A DNA stretch of 35,830 nt, from assembly GCF_000337135.1 (NCBI RefSeq), contig NZ_AOIN01000024.1:1-35830 (forward strand), in the 5' to 3' direction. A model generated the notes under the pieces. It saw only the letters and a list, made by a program, of their open reading frames with translations. It searched no databases and was not told the origin of the DNA. Positions 18,272 to 35,732 of this stretch are shown piece after piece (positions within the stretch are counted from its first letter, which is position 1; each line of letters starts with the position of its first letter). The position numbers and the translations under genes are program-made. This DNA is from Natrialba chahannaoensis JCM 10990 (lineage in GTDB: Archaea; Halobacteriota; Halobacteria; Halobacteriales; Natrialbaceae).

Positions 18272-18275
18272 TGTA

Positions 18276-18340
18276 TCAGGGGGTCAGGGATTCGTGGGTT
18301 CGTTGGCTCGTTGGTTCGTCTCGTGATCTGCGTGATACCG
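18276..18340. repeat. TTCGTTGG/CTCGTTGG short direct repeats between two cobalamin genes
   Basis: The spacer contains GGGTTCGTTGGCTCGTTGGT followed by TCGTCTCGTG, i.e. three near-copies of GTTCGTTG in a row (about 18297-18322). On the mRNA it reads ACGAACCAACGAGCCAACGA. No Shine-Dalgarno is visible for cbiX behind it. Function unknown. Confidence 0.55.
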
Positions 18341-18344
18341 CGTG

Positions 18345-19100
18345 CTATTCCTCGTCAGCGTCCTTGGTCTCGGTCCCGTCCTCATCCCCGCCCTCGGCCT
18401 GCGCGAGACTCAGCTCGAGTTTCCGCCGCCGGCTCGGCGCGAAGCACCCAGTCTCCTCGCAGCCCTCATAGAGCCAGGTGCCGAACGCGGACGCGGCACT
18501 GTCGTCGATTCCGAACCAGTACCCCCCGGAAGACGTCGCCGAGAGGTTGCCGAACGGAGCGTCAACGGGTGCCTCCGCGATCAGTTCCTGGGTCAACTCG
18601 AGTAGCCGCCGATCCTCGTGGACGAACGAGATACCGACGGTGCCACTGGAGGACTTGAAGCAGATGGTGCCACAGCCCTCGAGCAGCCCGCGGAGGAGTG
18701 CTCGCTCGTACCCGGAGAACGCGCCGAAGCGGTAGTTTCCGCGGCCGTCGACGGGGAGGCCGAGGGTGGTGGTGCGACCGAGTAACTCGTTGGTTTCGTC
18801 GGTCTCGATCGCGAGCGCGTACTCGTCTTCCGTTCGCGTGATCGATGCGTCGTGGGCGTACTCGCGGCTGATCGTGTCGTGCTCGATGTCACCGCCCGCA
18901 ACCGTGGCGAGCACCTGCGCGGACGCTTCGTCATTTGTGACGACCTCGAGCCGGTCGCTGGAAACGTCGCCGCTTCCGGCGACGTGCCCCCAGAAGTACG
19001 CCGACGCGGGGTGGCCCGCGAGTGGGTCTGCGGGCACTTCTATCTCGGTCGGTGCGTCGCCAACGTCGGCCACCTCAGTGGCAGCGTCAGCGTCGGTCAT
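18345..19100 (-). CDS. LAGLIDADG-like protein within the cobalamin operon (haloarchaeal cobalamin biosynthesis-associated protein)
   Basis: A 251-residue protein. The core reads RALLRGLLEGCGTICFKSSS, followed by VGISFVHEDRRLLELTQELI. This has the shape of a LAGLIDADG helix (L-x-G-L-x-E-x-x-G) plus the following strands and helix of homing-endonuclease folds. A first, weaker copy of the same arrangement occurs earlier (HPASAYFWGHVAGSGDVSSD, then LEVVTNDEASAQVLATVAGG). The acidic metal-ligand position is changed (ECG instead of ADG), so nuclease activity is doubtful. The ATG overlaps the ferredoxin stop as ATGA, and the C-terminal 20 residues are a low-complexity acidic tail. The function is unknown; its position argues for a domesticated role linked to corrin synthesis, perhaps regulatory or nucleic-acid binding. 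Confidence 0.65.
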   Translation of the reverse strand: MTDADAATEVADVGDAPTEIEVPADPLAGHPASAYFWGHVAGSGDVSSDRLEVVTNDEASAQVLATVAGGDIEHDTISREYAHDASITRTEDEYALAIETDETNELLGRTTTLGLPVDGRGNYRFGAFSGYERALLRGLLEGCGTICFKSSSGTVGISFVHEDRRLLELTQELIAEAPVDAPFGNLSATSSGGYWFGIDDSAASAFGTWLYEGCEETGCFAPSRRRKLELSLAQAEGGDEDGTETKDADEE

Positions 19101-19363
19101 TCGCCCACCTCCTCGACGATAATGGCGTCCGTCGGACAGGCCGCGGCAGCCTGTTTGGCCTCGTCGATGCGATCGTCGTCGAACGTCGCGACGACGCGTT
19201 CGGCGGTGTCCGTCACGTCGCCCTCGCAGTCGTAGACCGGATCCGCGTCGGGATCGACCGTCGCGAGGCCGTCCGCAGCCTCGACGAACCGCGGATCGCG
19301 AGTCAGACAGGCGAAGATGCCGTCGCAGGCGTCTTTCTCGATGGTGATTTCGTAGGCCGGCAT
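19097..19363 (-). CDS. Small ferredoxin, predicted [3Fe-4S] type
   Basis: An 88-residue protein starting MPAYEITIEKDACDGIFACL. Cluster-type cysteines are C13 and C19 (C-x5-C) and C78 followed by Pro (AAACPTDAI). In [4Fe-4S] ferredoxins the position between the first two is occupied by Cys or Asp; here it is Ile16, so a [3Fe-4S] cluster is the more likely form. The C-terminal helix and the strand IIVEEVGE match the family. The start at 19363 leaves 2 bases after the stop of the methyltransferase gene, and the stop overlaps the next start as ATGA, so it is tightly coupled. It may deliver electrons for ring contraction or cobalt reduction. Confidence 0.85.
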   Translation of the reverse strand: MPAYEITIEKDACDGIFACLTRDPRFVEAADGLATVDPDADPVYDCEGDVTDTAERVVATFDDDRIDEAKQAAAACPTDAIIVEEVGE

Positions 19364-19365
19364 GC

Positions 19366-20448
19366 TCAGTAGTCGTACTTCGTCTCGTAGCCCCGCGGGG
19401 TCACCATCCGGTCGTCCCAGACGTAGGTGTCCTCGGTGCCGACGACGATCGTCGTCGTCATGTCGATGATTTCGCTCTCGCCAAGTTCCTCGAGTTCCTC
19501 GAGTTCGGTGATCATCACCTGCTCGTCCTCGCGGCCCGCGCCGTGGACGATACCGACCGGCGTGTCGGGCTCGCGGTGTGTGAGGAGAATTTCGCAGCAC
19601 TTCTCGAAATTATCGCGGCGCTTGCGGCTCCAGGGGTTGTAGATCGTGATCGTGAAGTTCTCGCTGGCAACCGAGTGCAACCGCGACTCGATCTCGGGCA
19701 TTGGCACGAGGTGGTCCGACAGCGAGACCGAGACGGTGTCGTTCACCAGCGGCGCGCCGAGACGCGCCCCGCAGGACTGGGCCGCGGGAACACCTGGAAC
19801 CACTTCGAAGTCGACCATCGACGCTGTCGCGCCCTTGGACTCGAGTATCTCCAATGCGAGCCCGGCGAGCGCGTAGACGTTCGGGTCGCCGCTGCCGACG
19901 ATGGCGACATCGTTGCCCGCGAGCGTGCGATCGATCGACTCCTCCGTTCGGGAGACTTCGCCGCACATCGGCGTGTCGTAGATGTCGTCGGCCTGCTCAG
20001 TGATCTCGTCAGGGATGAGTTCGATGTAGGTCGTGTAGCCGACGATGTGGTCGGCCTCAAGTAACGCGTCTTTCGCGCGCTGGGTCATCCCCTCCGGATG
20101 GCCGGGACCGAGGCCGACGGCGATCAGCTGGCCAGGATCGGCATCGAAGTCCTCGATCGTCGCGCCGACCTCCTGCTCGTTGCTCGCGTCGTCGTCCGAA
20201 CTCGAGTTCGAAGCACCGCATTTCGAGGAACTTGAAGATGAGGAGTCGGATGAACTCGAATTCGAGGCCCCACATTTGGAACTGGTACTCGAGTCGTCGG
20301 CGTCGCTCGTGTCGCTCGTGTCGCTCGCAGATGCGCCACACGTCGAGCTCGCGGACTCAGTTCCGGATGCACTAGTCGATGCACCACATTTCGAAGTCGA
20401 TTCGTCGTCAGTGTCAGTGTCAGCGTCGGCATTGGTGTCCGTACTCAT
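19366..20448 (-). CDS. cbiH: Precorrin-3B/cobalt-precorrin-3 C17-methyltransferase with a Ser-rich, Cys-repeat N-terminal extension
   Basis: From the ATG at 20448 the protein has 360 residues. Residues about 100-355 are a SAM-dependent tetrapyrrole methylase: IAVGLGPGHPEGMTQRA (first SAM loop), VAIVGSGDPNVYALAGL, EVVPGVPAAQSCGARLGAPL and TITIYNPWSRKRRDN, all typical of CobJ/CbiH. The first 95 residues are low-complexity Ser/Asp/Thr with four CGAS motifs (Cys21, 37, 59, 77). CbiH methylates C17 and contracts the ring. An ATG at 20484 is also possible and would overlap the upstream gene by 17 bases. It lies 19 bases after the paralogous methyltransferase gene, and the ferredoxin gene starts 2 bases after its stop. 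Confidence 0.88.
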   Translation of the reverse strand: MSTDTNADADTDTDDESTSKCGASTSASGTESASSTCGASASDTSDTSDADDSSTSSKCGASNSSSSDSSSSSSSKCGASNSSSDDDASNEQEVGATIEDFDADPGQLIAVGLGPGHPEGMTQRAKDALLEADHIVGYTTYIELIPDEITEQADDIYDTPMCGEVSRTEESIDRTLAGNDVAIVGSGDPNVYALAGLALEILESKGATASMVDFEVVPGVPAAQSCGARLGAPLVNDTVSVSLSDHLVPMPEIESRLHSVASENFTITIYNPWSRKRRDNFEKCCEILLTHREPDTPVGIVHGAGREDEQVMITELEELEELGESEIIDMTTTIVVGTEDTYVWDDRMVTPRGYETKYDY

Positions 20449-20467
20449 GGTTGTCTCGTTGGTATCG

Positions 20468-21349
20468 TTAGAAGTCGTCGACATCACGCCCGCCGCGGGG
20501 GGTGAGGAGGTACGTTCGGTCGTCGTTGCACCAGGTCTCGGTTTCGTGGGTGCCGATGAGCAGCGAGGTGCCCATCCCCGATACCTTGTCGTCGTGGTCG
20601 GCGGCCTCGCCGAGCGTCGTAATGTGCTGGCTCTCGCCATTGCGGCCGGCGTCGGCGCGGCCGGCGTCGTTGACGATTGCCACGAGAGCGTCGTCGGTCC
20701 GTTCCTCACGGACGATCTCGACGGCCTTCTCGTAGTTGCGCCAGCAGTTGTAGAGGACGATCACGAAGTCCGAGATGGCAGCGGCTCGCAGTTTTTCCTC
20801 AATCTCGTCCCAGCCGCGCCACTTGTCCGACAGCGAGACGGTACAGAAGTCGTTGCACAAGGGCGCGCCAACGTTTGCCGCACCACCCAGCGCCGCCGTG
20901 AGACCGGGGACGATCTCGATTGGCACGTCCGTCGCGTCCTCCTCTTTGGCCATCTTGAAGATGAGGTCGGACTTACCGTAGACGGAGGGATCGCCGCCAG
21001 AGACGTGGGCCACGTCCTTCCCCTCGCGGACGTAGTCGAACGCCGCGCGGGCGAGTTCGATCTGGCGGCCCATCGTCGAGCGGACGATTTCCTGTTCGAA
21101 GCCGTCCTCGCGGGTTGCGACGCCGTCGTCGTCGACGGCGTCTTCCGGCGGGAGTGTGCCGTCGGCTCGGAGGAACTCTTGGTAGAGGCTCGAGGCGATG
21201 ACGACATCGGCGGATTCGATGACTCGTTTCGCCTTGGCGGTCATGTGCGCCGGAAGGCCAGGGCCGATTCCAACCACGAAGAGGGTGCCGTGGTCGTCGG
21301 GCGTCCCTCCATCGTCGGCTGCATTACCGGACGTGGCATCGGAACTCAT
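20468..21349 (-). CDS. cbiH: Second CbiH/CobJ-type precorrin methyltransferase
   Basis: A 293-residue SAM-dependent tetrapyrrole methylase paralogous to the downstream gene. Motifs: LFVVGIGPGLPAHMTAKA, VAHVSGGDPSVYGKSDL, EIVPGLTAALGGAANVGAPL and FVIVLYNCWRNYEKA. Its ATG overlaps the cbiG stop codon (ATGA), so translation is coupled. Haloarchaeal cobalamin clusters usually contain two cbiH-type genes in this order. One probably performs C17 methylation with ring contraction, and the other's step is not settled. Lacks the CGAS extension of its neighbour; instead has a short acidic leader of about 20 residues. Confidence 0.88.
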   Translation of the reverse strand: MSSDATSGNAADDGGTPDDHGTLFVVGIGPGLPAHMTAKAKRVIESADVVIASSLYQEFLRADGTLPPEDAVDDDGVATREDGFEQEIVRSTMGRQIELARAAFDYVREGKDVAHVSGGDPSVYGKSDLIFKMAKEEDATDVPIEIVPGLTAALGGAANVGAPLCNDFCTVSLSDKWRGWDEIEEKLRAAAISDFVIVLYNCWRNYEKAVEIVREERTDDALVAIVNDAGRADAGRNGESQHITTLGEAADHDDKVSGMGTSLLIGTHETETWCNDDRTYLLTPRGGRDVDDF

Positions 21350-22419
21350 CGACCAATCGCCACCGTAACCTCGTTCTCGTAGCTCACCTTCTCGAGTACC
21401 AGTTCCTGCTCAGCACCCCCTGCAATCGCACTCGCCTCGGAGACGCCGGGCCAGCCAATCAGCTCCTTCGACTTCGAGGGAGTCGGCCCCTCGTGTGCCA
21501 GGAGCGTCTCCTTGTCGAAGACGACGATACCGAGGTCCAACTCTCGAGCCGCTGCGAGCAGTCCCTCTTCGTCTTCCTTCCGCGTGGCAGTCCCAACGAA
21601 CTCGACATCGTCGAAACCGTACGCTGTCTGGTCGAGAGCGTCCTCCCAGGCAGCGAGGAAGGCCTCCTTGCTCGCGCCGGAGACGCTGCCGGTGCCGAGA
21701 ACGATGCCGTCCTCCTCGTTACGCTTGAGAACGGTCACGTCGTCGCCGACCAGTACCGCACGGGGGCCGTCGAGTCGCGCCACGGGACCGAGATCGTCGT
21801 CGAGCACGGCGAGGTTCGTCTTCACGGTCGAATCGCCGTTGACGACGTGGGTGTCCATCGCCTTGGCACGGGACTCGACACCCTGCTTTCCTGCCGCCTC
21901 GGAGGCCGTCGTCATCGCCGGCACGGCACCCATCGTCGCCAGATCCTGTGCGACCTGATTCGCGCCGTGGTGGCCGCCCGTGATCGGGATTGCCCACGTC
22001 AACTCCTCGTCGACAACGCAGATCGCGGGATCGTCCCACTTGTCGTCGAGCAGGTGCGCCGTCTTTCGCATCGCGATTCCCGAGGCCATGAGGCCGATAA
22101 AGCAGTCGTACTCGCCCCAGTGCTCCTCGAAGACATCGCCATGGTACTCGAGTAACGCAATGGACTCGTAGCGGTCGGCGAGTTCGGATTGAATTTTCTC
22201 GGCGGTGGGCAGTTTGCGCTCGAAGGTGACGATGGCGATTTCCTCGGCGACTTCGCCGTCGCTGTCAGGGGTGGCACAGTGGGACGATGAGTCTGCGTTC
22301 GTGGTCGTGCCATCGGCGTCAGTTTCGGCTGACTCCTTCGCTGCTTCTTCACCCTCTACCGTCGTCTCTGGCGCTGTCTCTCCCTCTCCCTCTAACTCCG
22401 ATTCTGATCCGGAACTCAT
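21346..22419 (-). CDS. cbiG: Cobalt-precorrin-5A hydrolase CbiG
   Basis: A 357-residue protein. After an acidic low-complexity leader of about 50 residues comes the CbiG N-terminal domain (EIAIVTFERKLPTAEKI, then GEYDCFIGLMASGIAMRKTA), the central domain (PAICVVDEELTWAIPITGGHHGAN, the conserved GGH pocket) and the C-terminal domain (IVLGTGSVSGASKEAFLAAW, then FVGTATRKEDEEGLLAAA). CbiG opens the lactone ring, releasing acetaldehyde. I chose the ATG at 22419 because a GGAGG Shine-Dalgarno lies 7 nt upstream; the frame is open back to 22506 but that part looks like leader. This is the first gene of the operon in the window. Confidence 0.9.
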   Translation of the reverse strand: MSSGSESELEGEGETAPETTVEGEEAAKESAETDADGTTTNADSSSHCATPDSDGEVAEEIAIVTFERKLPTAEKIQSELADRYESIALLEYHGDVFEEHWGEYDCFIGLMASGIAMRKTAHLLDDKWDDPAICVVDEELTWAIPITGGHHGANQVAQDLATMGAVPAMTTASEAAGKQGVESRAKAMDTHVVNGDSTVKTNLAVLDDDLGPVARLDGPRAVLVGDDVTVLKRNEEDGIVLGTGSVSGASKEAFLAAWEDALDQTAYGFDDVEFVGTATRKEDEEGLLAAARELDLGIVVFDKETLLAHEGPTPSKSKELIGWPGVSEASAIAGGAEQELVLEKVSYENEVTVAIGR

Positions 22420-22512
22420 CGAATCCCTCCACGGAGGAGGCGTCTCGATCGAGCAGTCACGAGCGGTCCGTTCATCACTAATACAATCCATCTTTCTCAT
22501 GTGCAATATAGG
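22417..22512 (-). promoter_or_regulatory. Promoter and leader of the cobalamin operon with a hairpin covering the Shine-Dalgarno
   Basis: On the minus strand a TATA-like element (CTATATTG, about 22504-22512) is followed by a leader of roughly 60 nt. The Shine-Dalgarno GGAGG (22426-22430 on the plus strand as CCTCC) is 7 nt before the cbiG ATG. An upstream CCTCC (22436-22440) can pair with it perfectly over 5 bp with a 5-nt loop, which would hide the ribosome site. A self-complementary CTCGATCGAG occurs just upstream (about 22444-22453). This suggests translational control of the operon. Confidence 0.5.
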
Positions 22513-22756: not shown

Positions 22757-23794
22757 TCAGAGCGCAGGCAGCGGTGGGAATCGCGTCCAGTCAATGATCG
22801 CGTCCGGATCGTGATAGCACTGATAGAACTCGCCCTGCTCATACGTAGTTGTGAACGAGTCGATACCCGGGCCGCGAACCTGGACATCACGAGGCGGTGC
22901 AATCCCCATGCCGAGATAGCAATCGCGGAGTTGGCATCGAAGATGGTCGACAACTGTGCGCTGAAATGCGGCGACAGACGTGATCGGCGAGTCGGTCACC
23001 GGCAACTGCAGTCGAACCGTGCCCTCGTCGCCGCCGGCGGCCGACTCGTCCGAGTCCTCGTACTCGACACGAGTGACCCCATCGACCTCCCACTCGACGC
23101 GGATGGGGCGACAGGGCGAGACAAAGTCCGTGCCATCGATATCGCCACTCGTGTCCCCTATCGAAATGGATTCCGAATCGGTCACAGCAGCCTGCGAGAG
23201 CGCGTCCTTGAGTCGGACGAATTGGCCATCACTCCGCCGGTCGGGCTGAGCGTCCATCGACTGGCGAAGCGCGCCGAGTCCCTCGAGTTCGACGAGCACA
23301 TCGAGAAGCGGTCGAAGTGCCGGCTCATCGATCCCAATAGCGAATTCCTGTTCGATCAGGCGACACGTCGCCGACGAGGTACCGGTCGGCGGGTCAACGG
23401 GGAGTGCGTCGGCCCCATCCTGACTGTCGACAGCAGCCCGCTGCCGATACGCGGTCTCCAGCGTCGATTCGACCGTCTCCGGCGTCATCGCACCGAGAAC
23501 GAGTGCCGCAGCAGCCACGTGCTCCGGATAGGTGATTCGATCCGTCGCACTGTAGGGGTCGAGCGCATCGAATCCGCACGCGCGAAAGGCGGCATACTTG
23601 GCGAACCGAGCAAGCTGTGCGTGCCGTTCGTGTTCAGCCAGGTCCTGCTCGTCACCGGTCAGTGACGATTCGTGAGGGCGGTGGTACTCGAGTTCCCCCT
23701 CATGCGTGACGGTGAGAGAATGCTCAGTGCCGTCGTTGTCGGCGACGGTGAGGTCGACGGTTCGGTCAGTTCGGGACTGGATAGTGGCCTGCAT
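22757..23794 (-). CDS. Uncharacterised protein divergent from the contractile-injection genes
   Basis: A 345-residue acidic protein with clear haloarchaeal codon use, so the frame is real, but I do not recognise the family. The N-terminus is beta-rich (TIQSRTDRTVDLTVADND, then LTVTHEGELEYH). Residues about 60-110 are Ala-rich and helical (RFAKYAAFRACGFDALDP). The last part has HLRCQLRDCYLGMG and EQGEFYQCYHDPDAI with several Cys. No membrane helix, signal or nucleotide-binding motif is visible. It lies head-to-head with the first contractile gene across 258 bases and could be a companion, but it could also belong to nothing on this side. Confidence 0.7.
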   Translation of the reverse strand: MQATIQSRTDRTVDLTVADNDGTEHSLTVTHEGELEYHRPHESSLTGDEQDLAEHERHAQLARFAKYAAFRACGFDALDPYSATDRITYPEHVAAAALVLGAMTPETVESTLETAYRQRAAVDSQDGADALPVDPPTGTSSATCRLIEQEFAIGIDEPALRPLLDVLVELEGLGALRQSMDAQPDRRSDGQFVRLKDALSQAAVTDSESISIGDTSGDIDGTDFVSPCRPIRVEWEVDGVTRVEYEDSDESAAGGDEGTVRLQLPVTDSPITSVAAFQRTVVDHLRCQLRDCYLGMGIAPPRDVQVRGPGIDSFTTTYEQGEFYQCYHDPDAIIDWTRFPPLPAL

Positions 23795-24052: not shown

Positions 24053-25306
24053 ATGACTCGGGATGGGGACTACACGACAAACGAGACGGGAGGGCTCTCT
24101 CAGTTCAAGAAGAATCGGTTCTTCAAGGGGAAACTAATGACCCCCCGTGATATGGAAGCAGAGCAAGAGTACCACGCCGAACGACTGGAGACGATAACCC
24201 GTTTCCTCGACGGGTCAGGGATCGTCCACGGACTTGAGGTCCAGTCCGTCTCCGAAACGGAAACCGGCCTCGACGTCACGCTCGACGCCGGATTTGCACT
24301 CGATGGGCGCGGACGGCCGATCGTTGTCGAACAGGTGACGACGAAGTCGCTTCCCGAACCGACTGCCGACGAGGTACATCTGTTCATTCAGTACAGCGAA
24401 GTCGCTGTCGAAACCGTTCCCGTTCCGGACACGGACGGCGCGATCGACGACGAAGCGGTGCCGAACCGCGATGTGGAAGTGTTCGAACTGACACACCGCG
24501 AGGAGCCCCCGGAGACCCCCACAGAGCCGCCAACGCTCGACCTCAGCGAGTTCGATCCGGAAACGGCCGACGCACAGGCGGTTACCAGAGCACTGACAGC
24601 GCAGTATCACGCCGAACATCGAACCGGGACACCGGATACGGACGATCCGGCCGTCTATCTCGGCGGATTCGAACGCCAGCCAGACGGGCGATGGGACCCC
24701 ATAGCAACCGCGGCAACCGAGATCGGCAAACAGTACGCAGCCGATCATGATCTGCTGTTTGCAGCCCTTGCAGCACATCTCGCCGACACGGACAACCCAC
24801 ACCAGACACCGGTATCTGACCAGACCGAGGAACGACCTGACGACCTGACCGGGATCGTCAAGCGACTCAGGGCGATGGAAGAGACGGTGGGCGAACTCGA
24901 AGCGGAGCGAGACACGATGCAGACGTACCTGCTCCGGAAGACCGTCAAAGATCGCGTCCGGTTCTTCGAAACGCTAAGCGACCGACTCGAACCACACACG
25001 GGCGAAGGCGCACGAATTACCCGTGAAATCGCAGAGCTCTCGCGCGACAATCACGCCGCGACCACGCGCGAAGACGTGTACCGCGCACAGCTCTCCGCGC
25101 TGCTGGACTATCTGGTTCGACTCGGTGAGCCCCTCGAATCGGTCGTCACCGAAGAGAGTCTCGAGCGGTACCTGAAAGCCGTCTCTCGACTCCAGTCACA
25201 GATCGATGAAAACGGACCGCTACTCGAATTGATCGACGCACACGATCAGGTGTGTGAAGCGGCTGAGTCGCTCGAAATTCTCGTTGGTGTCGTTCCTGAA
25301 GCGTAG
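24053..25306 (+). CDS. Contractile-injection-system accessory/baseplate-associated protein
   Basis: A 417-residue protein. Residues about 15-100 read FKKNRFFKGKLMTPRDMEAE, then LDGSGIVHGLEV and VTLDAGFALDGRGRPIVV. This matches a domain often found in extracellular contractile-injection (eCIS) clusters (pattern K-L-(L/M)-T-x-R-D, x-G-x-V-x-G-L-x-V, G-x-A-x-D-x-x-G-R). The middle is acidic and variable, and residues about 270-330 are a probable coiled coil (RLRAMEETVGELEAERDTMQ). The role may be in the baseplate or fibre region, or as an assembly factor; it is not resolved. It precedes the sheath gene by 107 bases and has its own promoter. Confidence 0.6.
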   Translation: MTRDGDYTTNETGGLSQFKKNRFFKGKLMTPRDMEAEQEYHAERLETITRFLDGSGIVHGLEVQSVSETETGLDVTLDAGFALDGRGRPIVVEQVTTKSLPEPTADEVHLFIQYSEVAVETVPVPDTDGAIDDEAVPNRDVEVFELTHREEPPETPTEPPTLDLSEFDPETADAQAVTRALTAQYHAEHRTGTPDTDDPAVYLGGFERQPDGRWDPIATAATEIGKQYAADHDLLFAALAAHLADTDNPHQTPVSDQTEERPDDLTGIVKRLRAMEETVGELEAERDTMQTYLLRKTVKDRVRFFETLSDRLEPHTGEGARITREIAELSRDNHAATTREDVYRAQLSALLDYLVRLGEPLESVVTEESLERYLKAVSRLQSQIDENGPLLELIDAHDQVCEAAESLEILVGVVPEA

Positions 25307-25352
25307 AACCGCCGAAATCGGTGGTCATTGGAACGTGTAGGTTAAGCAAAAG

Positions 25353-25405
25353 TATTATATTATACCAATTTCAAAAGTCCATAACGTAGTTGAAGCTTAC
25401 GAGGT
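25353..25405 (+). promoter_or_regulatory. Strong TATA box and Shine-Dalgarno of the sheath gene
   Basis: A textbook archaeal TATA element (TATTATATTATA, 25353-25364) preceded by an A-rich BRE-like AAGCAAAAG. Predicted transcription start is about 25384. A GAGGT Shine-Dalgarno at 25401-25405 lies 8 nt before the sheath ATG. Separate transcription of the sheath gene would fit the large number of sheath copies needed. Confidence 0.65.
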
Positions 25406-25413
25406 AATTAAGA

Positions 25414-27138
25414 ATGCCAGAGTATCAGGCCCCAGGTGTCTACGTTGAGGAAGTTAGTAGTGGAAGCAAATCGGTCGAAGGAGTTAGCACGAGTACGGCT
25501 GGCTTCCTCGGTCAAACGCGCCGTGGTCCGGTGGAGCCACGGCTGGTAACGAACTATGCCGAGTTCGAACGTGTGTACGGTTCGAGCCCGAAGAACTCTC
25601 ACCTCGACGTTGCTGTCGACGGATTCTTCAAGAACGGTGGTAGCCGCTGTTACATCGGTCGTGTGACCGCCGTGGATCCAAACGATGTTGCAACGACGAC
25701 GCTGATCGACGAAACCGGCAAGGAAACTGTCGAAATCGAAGCGAACGGACCAGGCGAGTGGGGAACATCCGTCGGAGTCATCGTACGCGACGGCCAGCGC
25801 CCAGGCCAATTCGACATGATCGTCCGTTACTGGTCGTGTGATCTCGAAGAGGTCAGCCAACCGGAATCCAACCGTCCGGAACCTGCACCCGATGTTGAGG
25901 AAGTTTTCGACGGCCTCTCGAGTGACCCACAGTCGAGCCAGTTCTACGAAAAGCAAGTGACTAGCTCCGTTCTCATCGATGTCGAGTATCTCGAGGACGG
26001 CCGTCCCGTCGAGGGGCTCACGTGGCTGAACCGCGACATGCCAACGGCATGTTCCGACGGTGGCCTCGTCGAGACCGACGGTGAGGAAACCGTCGTCTAC
26101 ATCCCAGAGGAACTCGAGGACCTGGGCTACAACGATCTTCGAGGTGTCGCAAAGCCGTTCGAAATCGCAGGAAATGCCTCGAAGGACGACCTCATCGAAG
26201 AGCTCGAAGAGATTCGCTCCGGTGAGCGAGAGGTTGAGGTCGAAGTCGTCACCGAAGAACCCGAGAAACCCGATGCAGAGGGAGAGGTTACCCTGAGCCA
26301 TTACGAAGGGATCGACAAGCCCGGTCTCCGAACTGGACTTGCCGGCTTCAAGGCGCTTGACGACATCTCCATCGTCTGTGTTCCTGACGAGAACGATGTC
26401 ACCGGATTGACCGACGCTCTCGTGGCTCACTGTGAGAACATGGGCGAGCGATTCGCAATCCTGCAGGCACCACAGAATCCGGGTCCTGTCTCGGAAATGG
26501 AGACGCCAGTTGACTCCACGTACGCGGCGTACTACTATCCGTGGCTCACCGTTCTCGATCCAGTGACGAACCGCGAGAAACTCGCCCCACCAGGCGGTCA
26601 CATCGCCGGTATCTACGCCCGAAGCGACGCACAGCACGGCGTGCACAAGGCCCCTGCAAACGAAGTCGTTCGCGGTATCGTTGGTTTGCAACACGAGATC
26701 ACGAAGGGTGAACAGGACGTGCTCAACCCGAAGGGGATCAACTGTATCCGCAGCTTCCAGGGCCGCGGCATTCGCGTCTGGGGTGCACGAACCACCTCGA
26801 GCGATCCCGAGTGGAAGTACCTCAACGTCCGACGCCTGTTCCTGTTCATTGAGCAGTCGATCGACGAAGGCACCCAGTGGTCGGTGTTCGAGCCGAACGA
26901 CAAGGATCTCTGGGCACGTATCCGCCAATCCGCCGAAAACTTCCTGACAACCGTCTGGCGCGAGGGCGGCCTACAGGGATCGACCGCTGACGAGGCGTTC
27001 TACGTCCGCTGTGGCGAGGAAACGATGACGCAGGACGACATCGATAACGGTCGTCTCATCGTCGAAATCGGCGTTGCACCGGTCAAGCCGGCTGAGTTCG
27101 TCATCTTCCGCATCAGTCAGGACACCGGCGACGCCTAA
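25414..27138 (+). CDS. Contractile tail sheath protein (T4 gp18 / Afp2-4 type)
   Basis: A 574-residue sheath protein. The N-terminus YQAPGVYVEEVSSGSKSVEG and FLGQTRRGPVEPRLVTNY is the characteristic sheath opening. The C-terminal domain is highly conserved: VWGARTTSSDPEWKYLNVRR, SVFEPNDKDLWARIR, FLTTVWREGGLQGSTADEAF and IVEIGVAPVKPAEFVIFRI, which provide the strands that interlink subunits. A central, less conserved domain includes a Glu-rich insertion near residues 265-290. Sheath subunits form the contracting outer cylinder around the tube. The similarity to eCIS/PVC-type sheaths rather than to a specific virus is my reading of these motifs. Not tested by search. Confidence 0.92.
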   Translation: MPEYQAPGVYVEEVSSGSKSVEGVSTSTAGFLGQTRRGPVEPRLVTNYAEFERVYGSSPKNSHLDVAVDGFFKNGGSRCYIGRVTAVDPNDVATTTLIDETGKETVEIEANGPGEWGTSVGVIVRDGQRPGQFDMIVRYWSCDLEEVSQPESNRPEPAPDVEEVFDGLSSDPQSSQFYEKQVTSSVLIDVEYLEDGRPVEGLTWLNRDMPTACSDGGLVETDGEETVVYIPEELEDLGYNDLRGVAKPFEIAGNASKDDLIEELEEIRSGEREVEVEVVTEEPEKPDAEGEVTLSHYEGIDKPGLRTGLAGFKALDDISIVCVPDENDVTGLTDALVAHCENMGERFAILQAPQNPGPVSEMETPVDSTYAAYYYPWLTVLDPVTNREKLAPPGGHIAGIYARSDAQHGVHKAPANEVVRGIVGLQHEITKGEQDVLNPKGINCIRSFQGRGIRVWGARTTSSDPEWKYLNVRRLFLFIEQSIDEGTQWSVFEPNDKDLWARIRQSAENFLTTVWREGGLQGSTADEAFYVRCGEETMTQDDIDNGRLIVEIGVAPVKPAEFVIFRISQDTGDA

Positions 27139-27160
27139 CGCCACCAACGCTGTTTCCGGA

Positions 27161-27180
27161 CCGCGAGTGTAGACACGCGG
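27161..27180 (+). terminator. Hairpin after the sheath gene
   Basis: CCGCG and CGCGG frame a short loop (27161-27180), 22 bases after the sheath stop; a second stem CGCTGC/GCAGCG lies at about 27229-27246. Either could attenuate read-through or stabilise the sheath mRNA. There is no long T-run, so termination is uncertain. Confidence 0.35.
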
Positions 27181-27286
27181 GACAATCTGCGGATACGAGA
27201 CGTAACGTATAACCGAACCAAGACGGGCGCTGCGACCGAAGCAGCGTCTCAGACGACATCAACTCACAACAAACACCATAACACAC

Positions 27287-27736
27287 ATGCCAGAACACGG
27301 ACCACTTCCAAGCACGGAGTTCGCCGTCGAACTCGACGGCGTTGACATTCCCGGATTCCTCGAGGTCAAGCTGCCGACCCAGGAAACGGACGAACAGGAC
27401 TACCGCGAAGGAGACGACCCAAAGCACTCGAAGAAGCTCTTCGGTGACGTCCACTACACGCCACTCGTACTGGCCCGCGGTGCCGAAGAAGACAACGAAC
27501 GACTCGACGACTGGCGAAAAGCCGTCGCAAACGGTGACGCAGAGGAGGCACGAAAGAATATCGCCGTCGTGATCAAGGACAAAGCAGGCGACTCTGCCCT
27601 GCGATTCGAATTCACTAACGCCTGGATTCGCAAGTACGAACCCCCAGCACTCAACGCACAGGCGGGCGGCACGGAAGCAATCGCCGTCGAAACCTACACC
27701 GTTGAATTCGAGGAGATGGAACGGAAGAACGTATGA
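27287..27736 (+). CDS. Contractile tail tube protein (T4 gp19 / Afp1-5 type), first copy
   Basis: A 149-residue protein of the tube family. It begins with FAVELDGVDIPGFLEVKLP, the first strand pair of the tube beta-barrel. The middle has LVLARGAEEDNERLDDWRKA (the conserved R-G then helix), and the end is AIAVETYTVEFEEME, the last strand that completes the hexameric ring. Tube rings stack to form the inner tube. A possible TATA-like element (ACGTATAACC, about 27206-27215) could give it its own transcript. Its stop overlaps the next start (ATGA at 27733-27736). Confidence 0.88.
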   Translation: MPEHGPLPSTEFAVELDGVDIPGFLEVKLPTQETDEQDYREGDDPKHSKKLFGDVHYTPLVLARGAEEDNERLDDWRKAVANGDAEEARKNIAVVIKDKAGDSALRFEFTNAWIRKYEPPALNAQAGGTEAIAVETYTVEFEEMERKNV

Positions 27737-27936
27737 CCAACTCGGAGGGGGAAAACAGGACAGCAGTGTCGACAGCCCGCACGTACACGGTCGGCCGTAA
27801 CCAGTACCGTGATACCTGGACTGTCGACGAAAACGGCTGTCTGCACACGGGAACGGCGACAGCCACGCCGTTCGTCGAACGCACAACGACGAGTACGCAG
27901 CCGGCAGTCACGGGCCGAGGTGTCCGCAAGCCATGA
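27733..27936 (+). CDS. Small protein of the contractile-injection operon
   Basis: A 67-residue protein starting MTNSEGENRTAVSTARTYTV. Its ATG overlaps the tube stop (ATGA), and its stop overlaps the next ATG by the same pattern (27933-27936), so it is translationally coupled on both sides. This coupling is the main evidence that it is real. It is Thr-rich and hydrophilic with one Cys (NGCLHTG) and no membrane segment. The family is not recognised; it could be a small assembly chaperone or cargo-related protein. Confidence 0.7.
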   Translation: MTNSEGENRTAVSTARTYTVGRNQYRDTWTVDENGCLHTGTATATPFVERTTTSTQPAVTGRGVRKP

Positions 27937-28499
27937 CAGACCAACCACTACAGACCGAGTTCGAGTTCACGCTTCCCCGGGGATACGTCGACGACGACGG
28001 CACACTCCACACGGAGGGCCGAATGCGCCTCGCAACCGCCGCCGACGAAATCCAGCCGTTGCAGAACCCGCGTGTGCAATCGAACTCGTCGTATCTGACC
28101 ATCGTCCTGCTCTCGCGTGTCGTCACTGAGCTCGGGACACTCGAGACGATCGACGAAGACGTTATTCAGAACCTCTTCGTCACGGACCTCGAGTACCTCC
28201 AGGCGATGTACGAACGAGTCAACAATCGTGGACGGAACGCCACCGAAACGGCGTGTCCGGACTGCGGATCGGTGTTCGACGTGGACGTCGAAACCGGTGC
28301 TCACCTCGCGCCGCCAGCCGATGCAGATGTCGAGCCCCCGGGTGTGAACACCGGCGCAGACGATATCGAAGAAGCGCACGGAACGGATGAGTCGTTCGAC
28401 GCGATTGGGACGGCTGTAACCGATGGTGTGGACGACGGGAACGACACCGGAAACGAACACGAACAGACGGAGGTCGAAGCGGGAAACCCGAGCGAGTGA
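27933..28499 (+). CDS. eCIS-associated tail assembly-like protein with a CxxC pair
   Basis: A 188-residue protein. The conserved part (about 5-115) contains FEFTLPRGYVDDDGTLHTEG, MRLATAADEIQPL, SSYLTIVLLSRVVTELGTL and FVTDLEYLQAMYERVN, then a CxxC knuckle (TACPDCGSVFDV). I know this arrangement from eCIS clusters, where it lies between tube genes and is called a tail assembly protein. With only one CxxC pair a zinc site would need a partner molecule or other ligands. The last 70 residues are a low-complexity acidic tail. Translationally coupled to both neighbours. Assembly rather than structural function is an inference from context. Confidence 0.65.
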   Translation: MTDQPLQTEFEFTLPRGYVDDDGTLHTEGRMRLATAADEIQPLQNPRVQSNSSYLTIVLLSRVVTELGTLETIDEDVIQNLFVTDLEYLQAMYERVNNRGRNATETACPDCGSVFDVDVETGAHLAPPADADVEPPGVNTGADDIEEAHGTDESFDAIGTAVTDGVDDGNDTGNEHEQTEVEAGNPSE

Positions 28500-28792
28500 T
28501 GCGGCTGTACGATTCCGACACCCTCTTCGAGGAGGTCGCGTTCATCGCCTATCACTTCGGCTGGACCCACGACGAGATCCTCACACTGCCACACTGGGAA
28601 CGACGGCGGTGGTGTGCCGCAATCAGCGATATCAACGACCGGATCAACGAGACGGGGACGCCGGAACACGAGCAGGGCCACAGCGCGACCGGGAGCCCTA
28701 GCGGAATCAGCCAGCAGACTGGGGGAGCCAACAGCTTCCTCGATGACGACGGTGATGGAATCGTGCTACAGAACTCACTGGACGAGCGCTAA
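28499..28792 (+). CDS. Small DUF6760-like protein of the contractile-injection operon
   Basis: A 97-residue protein with start ATG at 28499 sharing one base with the preceding TGA. Its first 50 residues, LFEEVAFIAYHFGWTHDEIL, then LPHWERRRWCAAISDINDRI, match the short conserved domain (EEVAFIAY-x2-x-W-x5-x-L-x2-x-ERRRW) found beside tube genes in eCIS clusters (DUF6760). The tail is Gly/Ser-rich and disordered. It may act with the preceding tail-assembly protein. The intergenic region after it contains a terminator-like hairpin. Confidence 0.7.
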   Translation: MRLYDSDTLFEEVAFIAYHFGWTHDEILTLPHWERRRWCAAISDINDRINETGTPEHEQGHSATGSPSGISQQTGGANSFLDDDGDGIVLQNSLDER

Positions 28793-28820
28793 CGGGCACT
28801 GACAGCAACTCCGAACGATT

Positions 28821-28839
28821 ACGGGTCACTCCCGTTTTT
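28821..28839 (+). terminator. Hairpin plus T-run between small genes and second tube gene
   Basis: ACGGG-TCACT-CCCGT forms a perfect 5-bp stem with a 5-nt loop and is followed directly by a T-run (CCCGTTTTTAG). Archaeal termination needs mainly the T-run; the hairpin makes this a plausible terminator or attenuator. A TATA-like GGTATACG follows (about 28847), so the second tube gene may have its own promoter. Confidence 0.55.
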
Positions 28840-28871
28840 AGAACCGGTATACGACAGACAGAACAATACCA

Positions 28872-29339
28872 ATGACCGGCGACGAAACACCATACACGGG
28901 CGGAGATGGGCCATACGCACAGTACAACTTCGAGGTCGAAATCGACGGCGAAACAGTCGCAGGCTTCGCCGAGGTCTCGGGAATTACGATGCAACTCGAG
29001 ACGATCGACTATCGCGAAGGAGGGGTGAACGATCACGTGCACACGCTCCCAGGGACGTTCGCACACGCGAATCTCGTGTTGCAACGCGGGATGACCAAGG
29101 ATGCCTCGTTCTGGGAGTGGATTCAGGACGTGATGAGCGGCAACATCACTCGGAAGAACGTGGTCGTCAAGATGCGAGAGGGGTTCAACGGAGAGAACGG
29201 CTGGGGGTGGGAGTTCAAACGCGCGTATCCGACGATGTGGCGCGGCCCAGATCTCGTGAGCACGAATCAGGGGATGGCAATCGAGTCGATCGAACTGTCA
29301 TACGAACAGTTCACGAAGATGTCGGGGTTGCCGGAGTAA
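28872..29339 (+). CDS. Contractile tail tube protein, second copy
   Basis: A 155-residue gp19/Afp-type tube protein. Conserved strands are YNFEVEIDGETVAGFAEVSG, HTLPGTFAHANLVLQRGMTK (with the R-G and following helix), FWEWIQDVM and IESIELSYEQFTKMSG. It differs strongly from the first tube protein: it matches the type that forms the initiator or lower tube ring in eCIS, whereas the other matches the bulk tube type. The assignment of roles is inference. It is the last contractile-type gene in the window; its stop codon sits in a hairpin. Confidence 0.88.
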   Translation: MTGDETPYTGGDGPYAQYNFEVEIDGETVAGFAEVSGITMQLETIDYREGGVNDHVHTLPGTFAHANLVLQRGMTKDASFWEWIQDVMSGNITRKNVVVKMREGFNGENGWGWEFKRAYPTMWRGPDLVSTNQGMAIESIELSYEQFTKMSGLPE

Positions 29340-29353: not shown

Positions 29354-30007
29354 GCTTAACGGTAGGATCGGGTCGAAAGAGGCGGACACGCGCCACGATT
29401 CTCGCGGTTACTTCGATACTCTAGAAGACACTAAATAGTGGTACTAACCGCAATTCGGGGTACGACTGACGTACTGGTGAGACTGCGCCGACTGCGTCGA
29501 CACCGTTCAAAGGTGTCAGCGATCGAACGTGGTGGGCGTAGTGACCATACTAATGAGGGCACTGAGAACAGCGAGAGCGACGAGAACAGCGAAACTAAAA
29601 GTAGCGAACCTAACCAGACAGCGTAACAGTAGGACGCGAATTCGATGAGACTCGAGTAACCGGCATCGATGGTGCTTCCGTAGGAAGACGTTCGGAGTGT
29701 GAGGGGAAAATCTGTGCGTGGCGGACGAGCGGACTATGCGTGAGTGGTTGCAGTTGCAGGGTGCGATCCTGAATCGAGCAGTACTGTTGTGGAGTGTGAA
29801 CCGCAAGCTGGCTGGAGTGAAACGAACACGACCGGGAAGGGAGTTCGGAGATGAGGCCAACCGGTTAGCCTAACCAGGAAGGCTAACCAAATACCGGTCA
29901 AAAGACCACGCAGAGGAGTCATATCACAGTGGACTGTAACGACAGCGGAACAAGCGGGTTGACAACCCAAACAATCAGCACGGTGACCCGCTAACAGCAA
30001 CGCACGC
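29354..30007. other. Long spacer after the contractile-injection genes
   Basis: About 650 bases with no supported gene. It has a duplicated GAGAACAGCGA (about 29564-29592) and the GGTTAGCC/GGCTAACC inverted repeat listed separately. A 62-codon plus frame at 29438 and a hydrophobic minus stretch (about 29516-29640) are open but unconvincing. In complete eCIS loci the LysM, spike and baseplate genes would be here. Confidence 0.5.
29863..29888. repeat. GGTTAGCC / GGCTAACC inverted repeat
   Basis: Perfect 8-bp arms (29863-29870 and 29881-29888) with a 10-nt spacer, about 120 bases before the M24 gene. The motif CTAACC occurs a third time in the loop. Could be an operator or transcript hairpin. 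Confidence 0.6.
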
Positions 30008-33165: not shown

Positions 33166-35190
33166 TTACACCCTGAGGATGATGTTTCCCGTTTGCTCGA
33201 CCTCGGCCGTCGCGTTTGGCGGGACAACCACGGTCGAGTCCATCTGTTCGATAATTGCCGGTCCCTCAAACGACGCACCGGCTCCGAGTTCGCCACGGTC
33301 GTAGACGGCCGTCTCGACGAACTCGCCTTCCGAATCGAAGTACGCCTCGCGTGTCGTCCGCTGCGCTCCATCGGCACTCCCGTCTCCAATTTCAGGAAAC
33401 GCGGGTTTTTCGACGACACCGCGGCCAGTTACGTGAAGACCGTAGATTTCGACCGACTGTTCCGTATCGGAGTAAGCGTAGGTCTGTTCGTGCTGGCTGT
33501 GGAACTGGGATCTGATCGCCGCCATACTCTCGATCGGACGCGAGCAACTGACCTCGAGTGAGCGCCACTGCCCAGTGTAGCGCATCTTGATCTCGTGTTC
33601 AAGTTGAATGTCACTCTCGTCGACACCCTCCTCGTCCAGTCGTTCGTGGATTTCGTCTTCCATCTCCTCGAACGCCGACTCGATGTCGGCGACGACATCG
33701 TCCGAGGCGTCAGCGATGAACGTCTGGGAGAGATCGTGTTCGACGTCGACTAGCAGACAACCGAGTGCAGAGTTGATTCCCGGATACGGCGGGATAATCA
33801 CATTAGGAATATTCATTTCGCGCGCAACGTGAGCCGCGTGCAGCGGTCCCGCACCGCCGAAGGCAACGAGTGCAAAGTCGCGAGGGTCGTATCCCTTGCT
33901 CGTCGAAACGAGGCGGACAGCGTTGCACATATTGGCGACAGTGATCTGCTCTATCGCCGATGCGGCCTCCGTGAGTTCGAGGCCCAGTGGCTCGGCGATA
34001 TCGCGCCGGATGACGTCGCGGGCAGGTTCGGCGGTCGCATCCATGTCACCACCGAGGAACTGATCCGGGTCGACCCAACCGAGCACGACGTTTGCGTCCG
34101 TCGTCGTCGGTTTGTCGCCGCCGCGGAGGTAGCAGGCCGGTCCCGGGTCTGCTCCCTGGCTCCGCGGACCGACACGGAGTGAGCCGCCGTCGTCGATCCA
34201 AGCGATGGAGCCGCCACCGGCACCGATCGTCTCGATATCCGTCGAGGGGAACATGATCGGATAGCCGTACTCGACGGCCCACTCGTCGGTCATCTCAATC
34301 TCACCTTCGTGTGTGAGCGAGACGTCCGCACTCGTTCCACCCATATCGAATCCGATCGCGTTCTCAAAGCCACACTGCTGAGCGATGTATCGACCAGCAA
34401 TCGCGCCTGCCGTCGGCCCCGAATTTGCGATACGGGCCGCGTAGTAGGCGATCGCCTCGGTCGTCATCACCCCACCGCCGGAGTGCATCGCGAGTACATC
34501 GCCGTCGTAGCCCCGGTCGGCAAGTTGGTCCGCGAGGTCGGTCAGATAGTCGCGAACGACCGGTACCAGCGCCGCGTTGATGACCGTCGTACTCGTTCGT
34601 TCGTGTTCGAACATCTCCGGCAAGATCTCGTGGGAGCTACAGACGAACGCCTCGGGGTACTCCTCCGCGACGATTTCCTCAACGCGCTGCTCGTGTTCGC
34701 CGTTGACGTACGCATTGATCAACGAAATCGCGATCGTGTCAATCCCGCGCTTTTCGAAGATTCGCACGACATCGCGGACAGCATCCTCGTCAAGCGGTTC
34801 GACGACGGTTCCTGCATAGTCGATTCGCTCGGGGACCTCGAGTCGATCTCGCCGCTTGACGTACGGATCGGCGACATCCTGGTACGCATCCCAGAGATCC
34901 TCCTTTGTTGCATCACGTATTTCGTGAACGTCTCGAAATCCTTCGGTCGTAATCAACCCGATTCGTGGCAACTCGCGCTCGATCAACGCGTTCGTCCCAA
35001 CCGTCGATCCGTGCGAGAAAAATTCGAGTTCATCGATCCCGGTATCCGCCTTGGTCAACCCGTTGATTACACCTTCAGCCGGATTCGCCGGTGTCGACGG
35101 TGTTTTCTCGATTTCGATCTCTCCGGTTTCCTCGTCAAAGACGATTACGTCCGTAAACGTTCCGCCAATGTCTACACCAGCACGTCTCAT
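33166..35190 (-). CDS. hyuA: Hydantoinase A / oxoprolinase family subunit (HyuA)
   Basis: A 674-residue protein starting MRRAGVDIGGTFTDVIVFDE, the ATP-binding fold of the ASKHA-like N-terminal domain. Further motifs are FFSHGSTVGTNALIERE, the central AMHSGGGVMTTEAIAYYAA, the phosphate-loop like NAIGFDMGGTSADVSLTHEG and VAFGGAGPLHAAHVARE. The C-terminus has the family beta-domain (EGPAIIEQMDSTVVVPP). I chose the ATG at 35190 rather than the GTG at 35205, because it starts the conserved glycine-rich strand directly. It is the first gene of the hyuA-hyuB operon, starting about 375 bases from the 5S rRNA end. Confidence 0.9.
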   Translation of the reverse strand: MRRAGVDIGGTFTDVIVFDEETGEIEIEKTPSTPANPAEGVINGLTKADTGIDELEFFSHGSTVGTNALIERELPRIGLITTEGFRDVHEIRDATKEDLWDAYQDVADPYVKRRDRLEVPERIDYAGTVVEPLDEDAVRDVVRIFEKRGIDTIAISLINAYVNGEHEQRVEEIVAEEYPEAFVCSSHEILPEMFEHERTSTTVINAALVPVVRDYLTDLADQLADRGYDGDVLAMHSGGGVMTTEAIAYYAARIANSGPTAGAIAGRYIAQQCGFENAIGFDMGGTSADVSLTHEGEIEMTDEWAVEYGYPIMFPSTDIETIGAGGGSIAWIDDGGSLRVGPRSQGADPGPACYLRGGDKPTTTDANVVLGWVDPDQFLGGDMDATAEPARDVIRRDIAEPLGLELTEAASAIEQITVANMCNAVRLVSTSKGYDPRDFALVAFGGAGPLHAAHVAREMNIPNVIIPPYPGINSALGCLLVDVEHDLSQTFIADASDDVVADIESAFEEMEDEIHERLDEEGVDESDIQLEHEIKMRYTGQWRSLEVSCSRPIESMAAIRSQFHSQHEQTYAYSDTEQSVEIYGLHVTGRGVVEKPAFPEIGDGSADGAQRTTREAYFDSEGEFVETAVYDRGELGAGASFEGPAIIEQMDSTVVVPPNATAEVEQTGNIILRV

Positions 35191-35205
35191 GCTCTCATAC
35201 CACAC

Positions 35206-35565
35206 AGTAAATCACGGTAGTGGTACATAACAGTTCCCCCGAAATCGGACCGAATTTAACAACTCAACAGCCGATGGGTGTCTGTCCCGAAATTCAGGTA
35301 CTGTTGTACAAAAGACGAGATTTCGGAGGTGATAGGGACCTCGAAAGCTACCACGCGGCCAGTGCACGACATCATAACTCCAGCCGAGTATCAACGAGAA
35401 GGTTCTGACGCTCGTCAATGTGAATACACAACCGACGTAGAACACTGGTGCCATACTCAGTCAAAATGTGTTTCGAATCGAAAGTCACTCAGAAGTATCT
35501 GTGAGAATCTGTTGTCAGAGTCGGTTGCAAAAGCAGTTGCTCCCGAATGTGAAATGCAGTATGAA
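35206..35565. other. Spacer between hyuA and the 5S rRNA
   Basis: About 360 bases without a supported gene. No tRNA-Cys, which often follows 5S in haloarchaea, could be found. It must contain the hyuA promoter on the minus strand (TATA-like TTATGTACC near 35224-35232) and the rRNA transcript end (T-tracts CTTTTG near 35528 and CATTTTGA near 35462 on the minus strand). Confidence 0.45.
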
Positions 35566-35687
35566 TGGAGCGGCGAATCGGGTCTCCCAGAGGATCTCTC
35601 ACTCCAGTACTCGCCGATACGCAGGTGGGCTTATCTTCCGTGTTCGGAATGGGTACGGGAGGAACCCCACCGCTTTGGCCGCTTCAA
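35566..35687 (-). rRNA. rrf: 5S ribosomal RNA
   Basis: The minus strand from about 35687 reads AAGCGGCCAAAGCGGTGGGG, then TCCCGTACCCATTCCGAACA, GGAAGATAAGCCCACC, GAGTACTGGAGTG, CTCTGGGAGACCCG, ending GATTCGCCGCTCCA. This is the conserved order of haloarchaeal 5S rRNA, about 122 nt. Helix I pairs GCGGC with GCCGC. The exact ends are estimated from the helix and from the adjacent tRNA-like element. It is transcribed leftwards as the last gene of an rRNA operon whose 16S/23S genes lie beyond the right edge. Confidence 0.93.
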
Positions 35688-35689
35688 AC

Positions 35690-35732
35690 CCGAGTAGTGG
35701 AATCGAACCACCGTGAACGACCACGTGCTCGG
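35690..35732 (-). promoter_or_regulatory. tRNA-like processing element before 5S rRNA
   Basis: On the minus strand CCGAG pairs with CTCGG and encloses two small hairpins: CGTGGTCGTTCACG and GTGGTTCGATTCCAC, the latter a perfect T-arm. This mini-tRNA ends 2-3 nt before the 5S 5' end. In Haloferax such an element is cut by tRNase Z to make the 5S 5' end, which I recall from published work on that genus. It supports that the downstream 5S is functional. Confidence 0.75.

What the first reader, a model, noticed from the sequence alone, without database searches (positions are those of the whole stretch)
24053..29339. Contractile-injection gene set in an archaeon without baseplate, spike or ATPase genes next to it
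Seen: a sheath, two different tube proteins and four eCIS-type accessory genes in one direction, ending at a hairpin and a 650-base empty spacer. Known: eCIS/PVC loci continue with LysM, VgrG-like spike, gp25, PAAR, baseplate J-like, tape measure, cap and AAA ATPase genes, and none is in the window. Inference: the locus is either split across the genome, degenerate, or a minimal contractile structure. The genes look intact with coupled starts and strong promoters, which argues against simple decay. This is the best candidate for an undescribed system here.
Basis: partly seen in the sequence, partly recalled or inferred. Interest (0 to 1): 0.78.

Follow-up and report, generated by a model that had tools for sequence, protein, structure and literature searches.

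The report
Scattered archaeal contractile injection weapon
These genes are the sheath-and-tube part of a known haloarchaeal spear-like killing machine (an archaeal type six secretion system), and the "missing" baseplate, cap, motor and toxin genes are in the same genome but at other places, an arrangement that is old, shared with sister species and under selection.

Summary
Window 24053-29339 encodes Cis13, sheath (Cis2), tube (Cis1), two small proteins, DUF6760 and tube adaptor (Cis5) of the haloarchaeal CIS/T6SS described by Zachs 2024. The rest is in the same genome: contig C21 carries a 6-TM putative anchor, a giant disordered protein, Cis7, hub, spike, PAAR, gp25, two baseplate-J proteins and a Tail_P2_I protein. 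C37 carries an AAA ATPase, cap (Cis16) and three eCIS_core toxin genes. The "650-base empty spacer" contains the scar of a deleted cap gene that is intact at that spot in two sister species. Those sisters (Natrialba hulunbeirensis, Natrialba sp. SSL1) share the sheath/baseplate split at the same two chromosomal positions, with dN/dS 0.01-0.2 for sheath, tube and baseplate genes. Two complete genomes of another genus have the modules 0.64 and 0.89 Mb apart; other relatives have one contiguous cluster. The genome carries about 30 eCIS_core matches and four AAA ATPases in toxin islands; CIS-less congeners have no eCIS_core match. Verdict: a functional-looking, genome-dispersed variant of a known system.

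The parts
22757..23794 (-). partnerW: 345-aa protein, divergent from cis13; paralogue of the partner genes that follow eCIS_core toxin genes, but with no toxin gene next to it
   Evidence: tblastn and HMM similarity to C37 partners; kept at the same place beside cis13 in Natrialba, Halopiger, Halovivax and Haloferax loci; AlphaFold2 model pLDDT 88, pTM 0.90, no solved or viral fold with E<=0.001
24053..25306 (+). cis13 (a GTG start at 24020 is also possible)
   Evidence: NCBIfam NF053767 CIS13, 576.9 bits, cut-off 370
25414..27138 (+). cis2, contractile sheath, 574 aa
   Evidence: Pfam PF04984, PF17482; PDB 9ezm 1025 bits over 573 of 574 residues; only one copy in the genome
27287..27736 (+). 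cis1, inner tube
   Evidence: NCBIfam NF053769 CIS1, 287 bits, cut-off 220
27733..27936 (+). 67-aa ORF of unknown role, translationally coupled
   Evidence: kept in G003 and G005 (76-78%) and in G018, G096, G067 (54-57%); weak constraint, dN/dS 0.35-0.53
27933..28499 (+). 188-aa CIS-associated protein with a CxxC pair
   Evidence: 87-89% in sister species, 64-73% in other genera; dN/dS about 0.12
28496..28792 (+). DUF6760 protein
   Evidence: Pfam PF20546 9e-37
28872..29339 (+). cis5, inner tube adaptor (second tube protein)
   Evidence: NCBIfam NF053770 CIS5, 290 bits, cut-off 260
29438..29626 (+). 62-codon remnant of cis16 (cap): first about 60 and last about 110-160 bp kept, roughly 460 bp between them deleted
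   Evidence: blastn to the intact gene in G005 and G003: 29426-29493 E 3e-11 and 29496-29592 E 2e-6; alignment and sequence

Best explanation
The window holds the sheath/tube module (Cis13, Cis2, Cis1, Cis5 plus small proteins) of a haloarchaeal CIS that most likely works as a membrane-anchored, contact-dependent T6SS-like weapon. The machine is built in trans from at least three chromosomal loci: this module; a baseplate/spike/anchor operon (contig C21); and an AAA ATPase plus cap plus toxin island (contig C37), with three further ATPase/toxin islands. Inferred working: the 6-TM anchor and the baseplate dock on the cytoplasmic membrane, Cis5 starts the tube on the hub/Cis7, Cis1 and Cis2 polymerise, and a cap encoded on C37 closes the end. 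ATPase and eCIS_core effectors are supplied from the islands, and contraction drives the spike into a neighbouring cell. SHOWN here: gene identities, dispersal, conservation of the sheath/baseplate split, purifying selection, loss of the local cap, co-occurrence with eCIS_core genes. INFERRED: assembly, membrane anchoring, killing, ATPase as effector loader.
For: Equivalog-level matches for Cis13, Cis1, Cis5; sheath to PDB 9ezm at 1025 bits. Own-genome baseplate genes on C21: LysM/CIS_tube, GPD hub, OB spike, gp25, two Baseplate_J, Tail_P2_I, PAAR read from sequence. Cap and eCIS_core toxins on C37; AAA domain 1.8e-27. Only one sheath, two tube proteins and one gp25 in the genome. Sister species G003 and G005 have the same sheath/baseplate split at the same neighbourhoods. 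dN/dS 0.01-0.2 for Cis and anchor genes in both modules. Complete single-contig genomes G036 and G039 have the modules 892 kb and 639 kb apart. Contiguous clusters with the same gene set in G004, G018, G096 and on the Haloferax larsenii plasmid. Anchor: 6 TM + about 160 aa, 42% identical over 94% to the H. larsenii gene beside its CIS, matching the description of Hbor_38620 in PMC11566945. eCIS_core matches: 30 here, 0 in the three CIS-less congeners.
Against: No expression, particle or killing data for this organism. The native cap gene is deleted here; the C37 cap is a distant homologue (48% to the sister-species cap), so its fit is unproven. The C37 ATPase reads open only across single-N assembly gaps with duplicated edges. 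Physical distance between contigs of this genome is only bounded: at least about 42 kb for sheath to baseplate, but C37 could lie only about 10 kb plus a gap from the window's right end. An eCIS (released) mode cannot be excluded by sequence.
Confidence: 0.87

Rival explanations
1. Decaying remnant: the cluster was broken up and is being lost.
For: The local cap gene is reduced to a 62-codon remnant; the 67-aa ORF is weakly constrained (dN/dS 0.35-0.53).
Against: Sheath, tube, Cis13 and all baseplate genes tested are intact with dN/dS 0.01-0.2 since a split shared by three species; the genome has about 30 eCIS_core matches, more than its contiguous congener G004 (6); a second cap gene is present.
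Confidence: 0.07
2. Minimal contractile structure made from this module alone (sheath and tube without baseplate).
For: The window module has no hub, spike or ATPase.
Against: Complete baseplate, spike, cap and ATPase sets exist in the same genome and co-occur with the sheath in 30 of 32 family members for gp25 and 21 of 21 tested for the cap.
Confidence: 0.02
3. Released eCIS particle rather than membrane-anchored T6SS-like machine.
For: Cap, ATPase and eCIS_core effectors are shared with eCIS.
Against: A conserved 6-TM protein matching the described putative anchor of the T6SS-mode clade heads the baseplate operon (PMC11566945).
Confidence: 0.15
4. Tail of a myovirus or provirus.
For: Sheath and tube folds are shared with myovirus tails.
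Against: Best phage sheaths are below 40% over partial length, against 98% and 88-89% in syntenic chromosomal CIS loci; equivalog matches are to CIS families. Head genes were not searched systematically.
Confidence: 0.01

Closest known systems
Haloarchaeal CIS / archaeal T6SS of Halogeometricum borinquense and Haloferax elongans (Zachs et al. 2024, PMC11566945; PDB 9ezm sheath)
   Same: Same sheath family, Cis1, Cis5, Cis13, Cis7, hub, spike, PAAR, gp25, two Cis11-like baseplate proteins, cap, AAA ATPase, 6-TM putative anchor, eCIS_core (DUF4157) toxin plus partner genes.
   Different: There the structural genes form one cluster with an 8.7-kb interspacing region; here sheath/tube, baseplate/anchor and ATPase/cap/toxins are three separate loci, and the original cap gene is deleted.
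Haloferax larsenii plasmid pHl5678-1 CIS (NZ_CP078064)
   Same: Same gene set and order inside each module; partnerW homologue beside cis13; anchor homologue upstream of Cis7.
   Different: One contiguous locus on a plasmid.
Halopiger djelfimassiliensis CIS (G018)
   Same: Sheath 89%; same modules; inserted between cbiF and cbiG of the cobalamin cluster, the same genes that abut the two halves here.
   Different: Contiguous; opposite orientation relative to the cobalamin genes.
Afp/PVC-type eCIS
   Same: Overall part list, cap, AAA ATPase, eCIS_core-type cargo.
   Different: Released particles, contiguous operons; no 6-TM anchor (from general knowledge of these systems).
Orphan hcp/vgrG/PAAR islands of bacterial T6SS (e.g. 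PMC13098142)
   Same: Effector-related genes scattered away from the structural cluster.
   Different: Here the structural cluster itself is split, and the islands carry AAA ATPases and eCIS_core toxins.

Membership tests
Haloarchaeal CIS / T6SS (Zachs 2024) | Cis2-type sheath | tested here: met
   PDB 9ezm 1025 bits over full length
Haloarchaeal CIS / T6SS (Zachs 2024) | Cis1 tube, Cis5 adaptor, Cis13 | tested here: met
   NCBIfam equivalogs above curated cut-offs
Haloarchaeal CIS / T6SS (Zachs 2024) | Baseplate/spike set (Cis7, hub, spike, gp25, PAAR, Cis11a, Cis11b, Tail_P2_I) in the genome | tested here: met
   all on contig C21
Haloarchaeal CIS / T6SS (Zachs 2024) | Cap (Cis16) and AAA ATPase | tested here: met
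   C37 Pvc16_N 106 bits and AAA 96.8 bits; local cap copy is a remnant; the C37 ATPase frame crosses assembly gaps
Haloarchaeal CIS / T6SS (Zachs 2024) | Six-TM putative membrane anchor (T6SS-mode clade) | tested here: met
   416 aa, six hydrophobic segments, about 160-aa C-terminal part; 42% to the H. larsenii gene beside its CIS; Hbor_38620 itself was not compared
Haloarchaeal CIS / T6SS (Zachs 2024) | eCIS_core toxin genes with partner genes | tested here: met
   PF13699 1e-29 to 1e-31 on C37, 30 matches in the genome
Haloarchaeal CIS / T6SS (Zachs 2024) | Structural genes in one cluster (usual, not defining) | tested here: not met
   three contigs; sheath/baseplate split shared by sister species
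Haloarchaeal CIS / T6SS (Zachs 2024) | Membrane-docked sheath and contact-dependent killing | not testable with these tools
   needs cryo-tomography and co-culture
eCIS (released particle) | Free extracellular particles | not testable with these tools
   needs particle preparation from supernatant
Myovirus/provirus | Head, portal and terminase genes with the tail genes | not tested
   not searched by family; none noticed among the ORFs beside the modules

The most novel reading that the evidence does not exclude
Some haloarchaea run a contractile weapon as a stable, genome-dispersed kit: sheath module, baseplate module, and many interchangeable toxin islands that each bring their own AAA ATPase and sometimes the cap, so that the ATPase (and perhaps the cap) travels with the cargo and selects or loads it, and armament can be swapped by recombination between islands without touching the structural genes.
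Probability: 0.35. Interest if true: 0.68.

Novelty: new variant of a known kind. Interest (0 to 1): 0.5.

Why it matters
Published surveys look for CIS genes in close proximity (stated for eCIStem in PMC8213781; PMC11566945 counted clusters), so dispersed systems like this can be overlooked or misread as degenerate. In this family the separated sets are maintained by selection and arose at least twice, so co-localisation is not needed for the machine to persist. The linkage of AAA ATPases to toxin islands, away from structural genes, gives a natural test of the ATPase as effector loader, which is shown for Pvc15 in bacteria (PMC11495950); I know of no such test in archaea.

Tried and rejected
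(1) Second complete CIS in the genome: rejected, single sheath, two tubes, one gp25, one cap. (2) Assembly artefact as the only cause of the split: rejected, because sister species share it and complete genomes G036 and G039 show it. (3) Provirus: best phage sheaths are partial and below 40%. (4) Hairpin/terminator at 29339: not above shuffles. (5) PartnerW as a known fold: no PDB or BFVD match with E<=0.001. (6) First partner alignment held one sequence outside the rule of the structure tool and was returned uncounted; that row was left out and the rest run. (7) IQ-TREE did not produce a tree; only the FastTree topology is used. (9) tRNA target site in the window: none.
Full report
1. WHAT IS IN THE WINDOW. 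The seven co-directional genes are real and intact. Curated NCBIfam equivalog models name three of them above their cut-offs: 24053-25306 is CIS13, 27287-27736 CIS1 (inner tube), 28872-29339 CIS5 (tube adaptor). 25414-27138 is the sheath; its best solved relative, PDB 9ezm, matches over 573 of 574 residues at 1025 bits. I take 9ezm to be the H. borinquense Cis2 of Zachs et al. 2024 (PMC11566945) from its length and score; the tool output does not name the organism. DUF6760, a 188-aa and a 67-aa protein complete the module.

2. THE REST OF THE MACHINE IS IN THE SAME GENOME. The window is most of contig C24 (36181 bp) of a 106-contig genome. On contig C21 (100101 bp; loci L002 and L003) lies an operon: 416-aa membrane protein (34504-35754), 1512-aa disordered protein (35893-40431), Cis7 (CIS_tube+LysM), hub (Phage_GPD), spike (Phage_base_V), PAAR, gp25, two Baseplate_J proteins (1187 and 732 aa) and a Tail_P2_I protein. 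On contig C37 (25648 bp; L007) lie an AAA ATPase, a cap gene (Pvc16_N) and three eCIS_core (DUF4157) toxin genes with partner genes. No second sheath, tube or gp25 exists in the genome. The membrane protein has six hydrophobic segments and about 160 further residues, fitting the description of the putative anchor Hbor_38620 in PMC11566945, and is 42% identical over 94% to the gene beside the Haloferax larsenii plasmid CIS.

3. THE SPLIT IS REAL, OLD AND RECURRENT. Four of seven genomes of the genus have the sheath. The sheath module sits between the same genes (pqq-like and pepQ-hyuB-hyuA) in all three, and the baseplate module shares its upstream neighbourhood in all three, so that split predates these species. 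G004 has one contiguous cluster, 752-778 kb. In the family, 32 of 125 genomes have the sheath and 30 of these have gp25. Of 23 genomes with both on one contig, 18 have them within 30 kb, three at 56-66 kb and two beyond 600 kb. The two are complete single-contig genomes G036 (892 kb) and G039 (639 kb around the circle, taking the single contig as a closed circle). The cap is also more than 100 kb from the sheath in five genomes. A FastTree of four concatenated module proteins places the Natrialba and Halovivax split groups apart, with contiguous systems between, so at least two separations are most likely (unrooted, one method, and the genus name Halovivax rests on G035 matching H. asiaticus).

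4. ORIGIN OF THE BREAK. In G018 (Halopiger djelfimassiliensis) the whole CIS lies between cbiF and cbiG of the cobalamin cluster. In the window genome the cobalamin cluster is likewise broken between cbiF and cbiG: cobN-cbiF abut the anchor on C21, and cbiG-cbiX abut partnerW in the window. The simplest reading (inference) is an ancestral insertion there, followed by rearrangement; the sisters G003 and G005 lack cobalamin genes at both places, so the exact order of events is open. In contiguous relatives the toxin/ATPase stretch lies between baseplate and sheath operons (G018, G096). Since toxin islands are multi-copy, recombination between them is a plausible cause of the separation, but this was not tested.

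5. THE "EMPTY" SPACER. In G003 and G005 an intact cap gene follows cis5. In the window, 29426-29493 matches its start (78%, E 3e-11) and 29496-29592 its end (69%, E 2e-6); what is left is an in-frame 62-codon ORF. The only full cap gene of this genome is on C37 and is 48% identical to the sister-species gene and 61% to the cap beside an ATPase island in G039. The cap was therefore probably replaced by an island-borne homologue.

6. SELECTION. Pairwise dN/dS (Nei-Gojobori, against G003 and G005) is 0.03 for sheath, 0.03-0.05 tube, 0.02-0.03 Cis5, 0.05-0.06 Cis13, 0.014 Cis7, 0.04-0.05 hub, spike and gp25, 0.16-0.17 Cis11a and Cis11b, 0.13-0.14 Tail_P2_I, 0.20 anchor. As that split is older than the three species, this is constraint acting on separated modules. 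The ATPase and cap were not included in this measure.

7. TOXIN ISLANDS. eCIS_core has 30 matches in this genome (several are fragments), 19 in G003, 18 in G036, 14 in G039, 6 in G004, 5 in G005 and none in the three congeners without a sheath. Four related AAA ATPases (87-100% over the AAA region) lie on C37, C61, C36 and C46 of this genome, each beside eCIS_core and partner genes. Partner identity tracks the toxin's variable C-terminal part (Spearman 0.29) and not the core (-0.03) over 43 non-redundant pairs, in line with the immunity role reported for partners in PMC11566945. The p-value printed there treats pairs as independent and should not be used.

8. MECHANISM. Best reading: a membrane-anchored, T6SS-like CIS assembled in trans. 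Identity of parts and selection are shown; docking, firing and killing are inferred from the homologous systems in PMC11566945. Effector loading by the ATPase is inferred from Pvc15 (PMC11495950), strengthened by the ATPase/toxin linkage.

9. NOVELTY AND LIMITS. The system is known; the dispersed layout is a variant for which I found no description in six text searches of the held papers. Figures and supplements of PMC11566945 were not readable here, so some of these genomes may be drawn there. Contig separation gives only lower bounds in this genome: sheath to baseplate at least about 42 kb; sheath to C37 not bounded usefully. In G005 the ATPase lies 178 kb inside a 491-kb contig without the sheath module.

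Noticed in passing
L002:9894-14432 (G000:C21:35893-40431): A 1512-aa Ser/Thr/Arg-rich, probably disordered protein directly upstream of cis7. Equivalents of 1340-1615 aa sit there in eight other genomes, with a conserved C-terminus (about FDADVDRIVERLYRKLERKQRIERERRGL). Haloferax larsenii has a 2319-aa open frame, annotated only as 178 aa. Candidate for the tape measure that PMC11566945 reported missing.
   Followed up: partly
window 22757-23794: PartnerW, a confident model (pTM 0.90) without a matching solved or viral fold; an orphan paralogue of toxin partners kept beside cis13 in several genera.
   Followed up: partly
G000:C61:19469-29949, C36:19462-27699, C46:196337-205709, C37:845-11473: Four AAA-ATPase/eCIS_core toxin islands in one genome, some with fragmentary toxin cores and partial ATPase copies.
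   Followed up: partly
window 17033-22506 and L002:117-8268: Cobalamin gene cluster broken between cbiF and cbiG; in Halopiger djelfimassiliensis the complete CIS sits exactly in that gap.
   Followed up: partly
L007 6840, 8606, 9716, 9959, 10427, 10643: Single N positions with repeated coding sequence on both sides in several cases; look like unmerged contig overlaps in the assembly, so the C37 ATPase frame is unreliable in detail.
   Followed up: no
L003:3415-3622: Annotation of the Tail_P2_I start is ambiguous: the longest frame overlaps the second baseplate J gene by about 200 bases; relatives start later.
   Followed up: no
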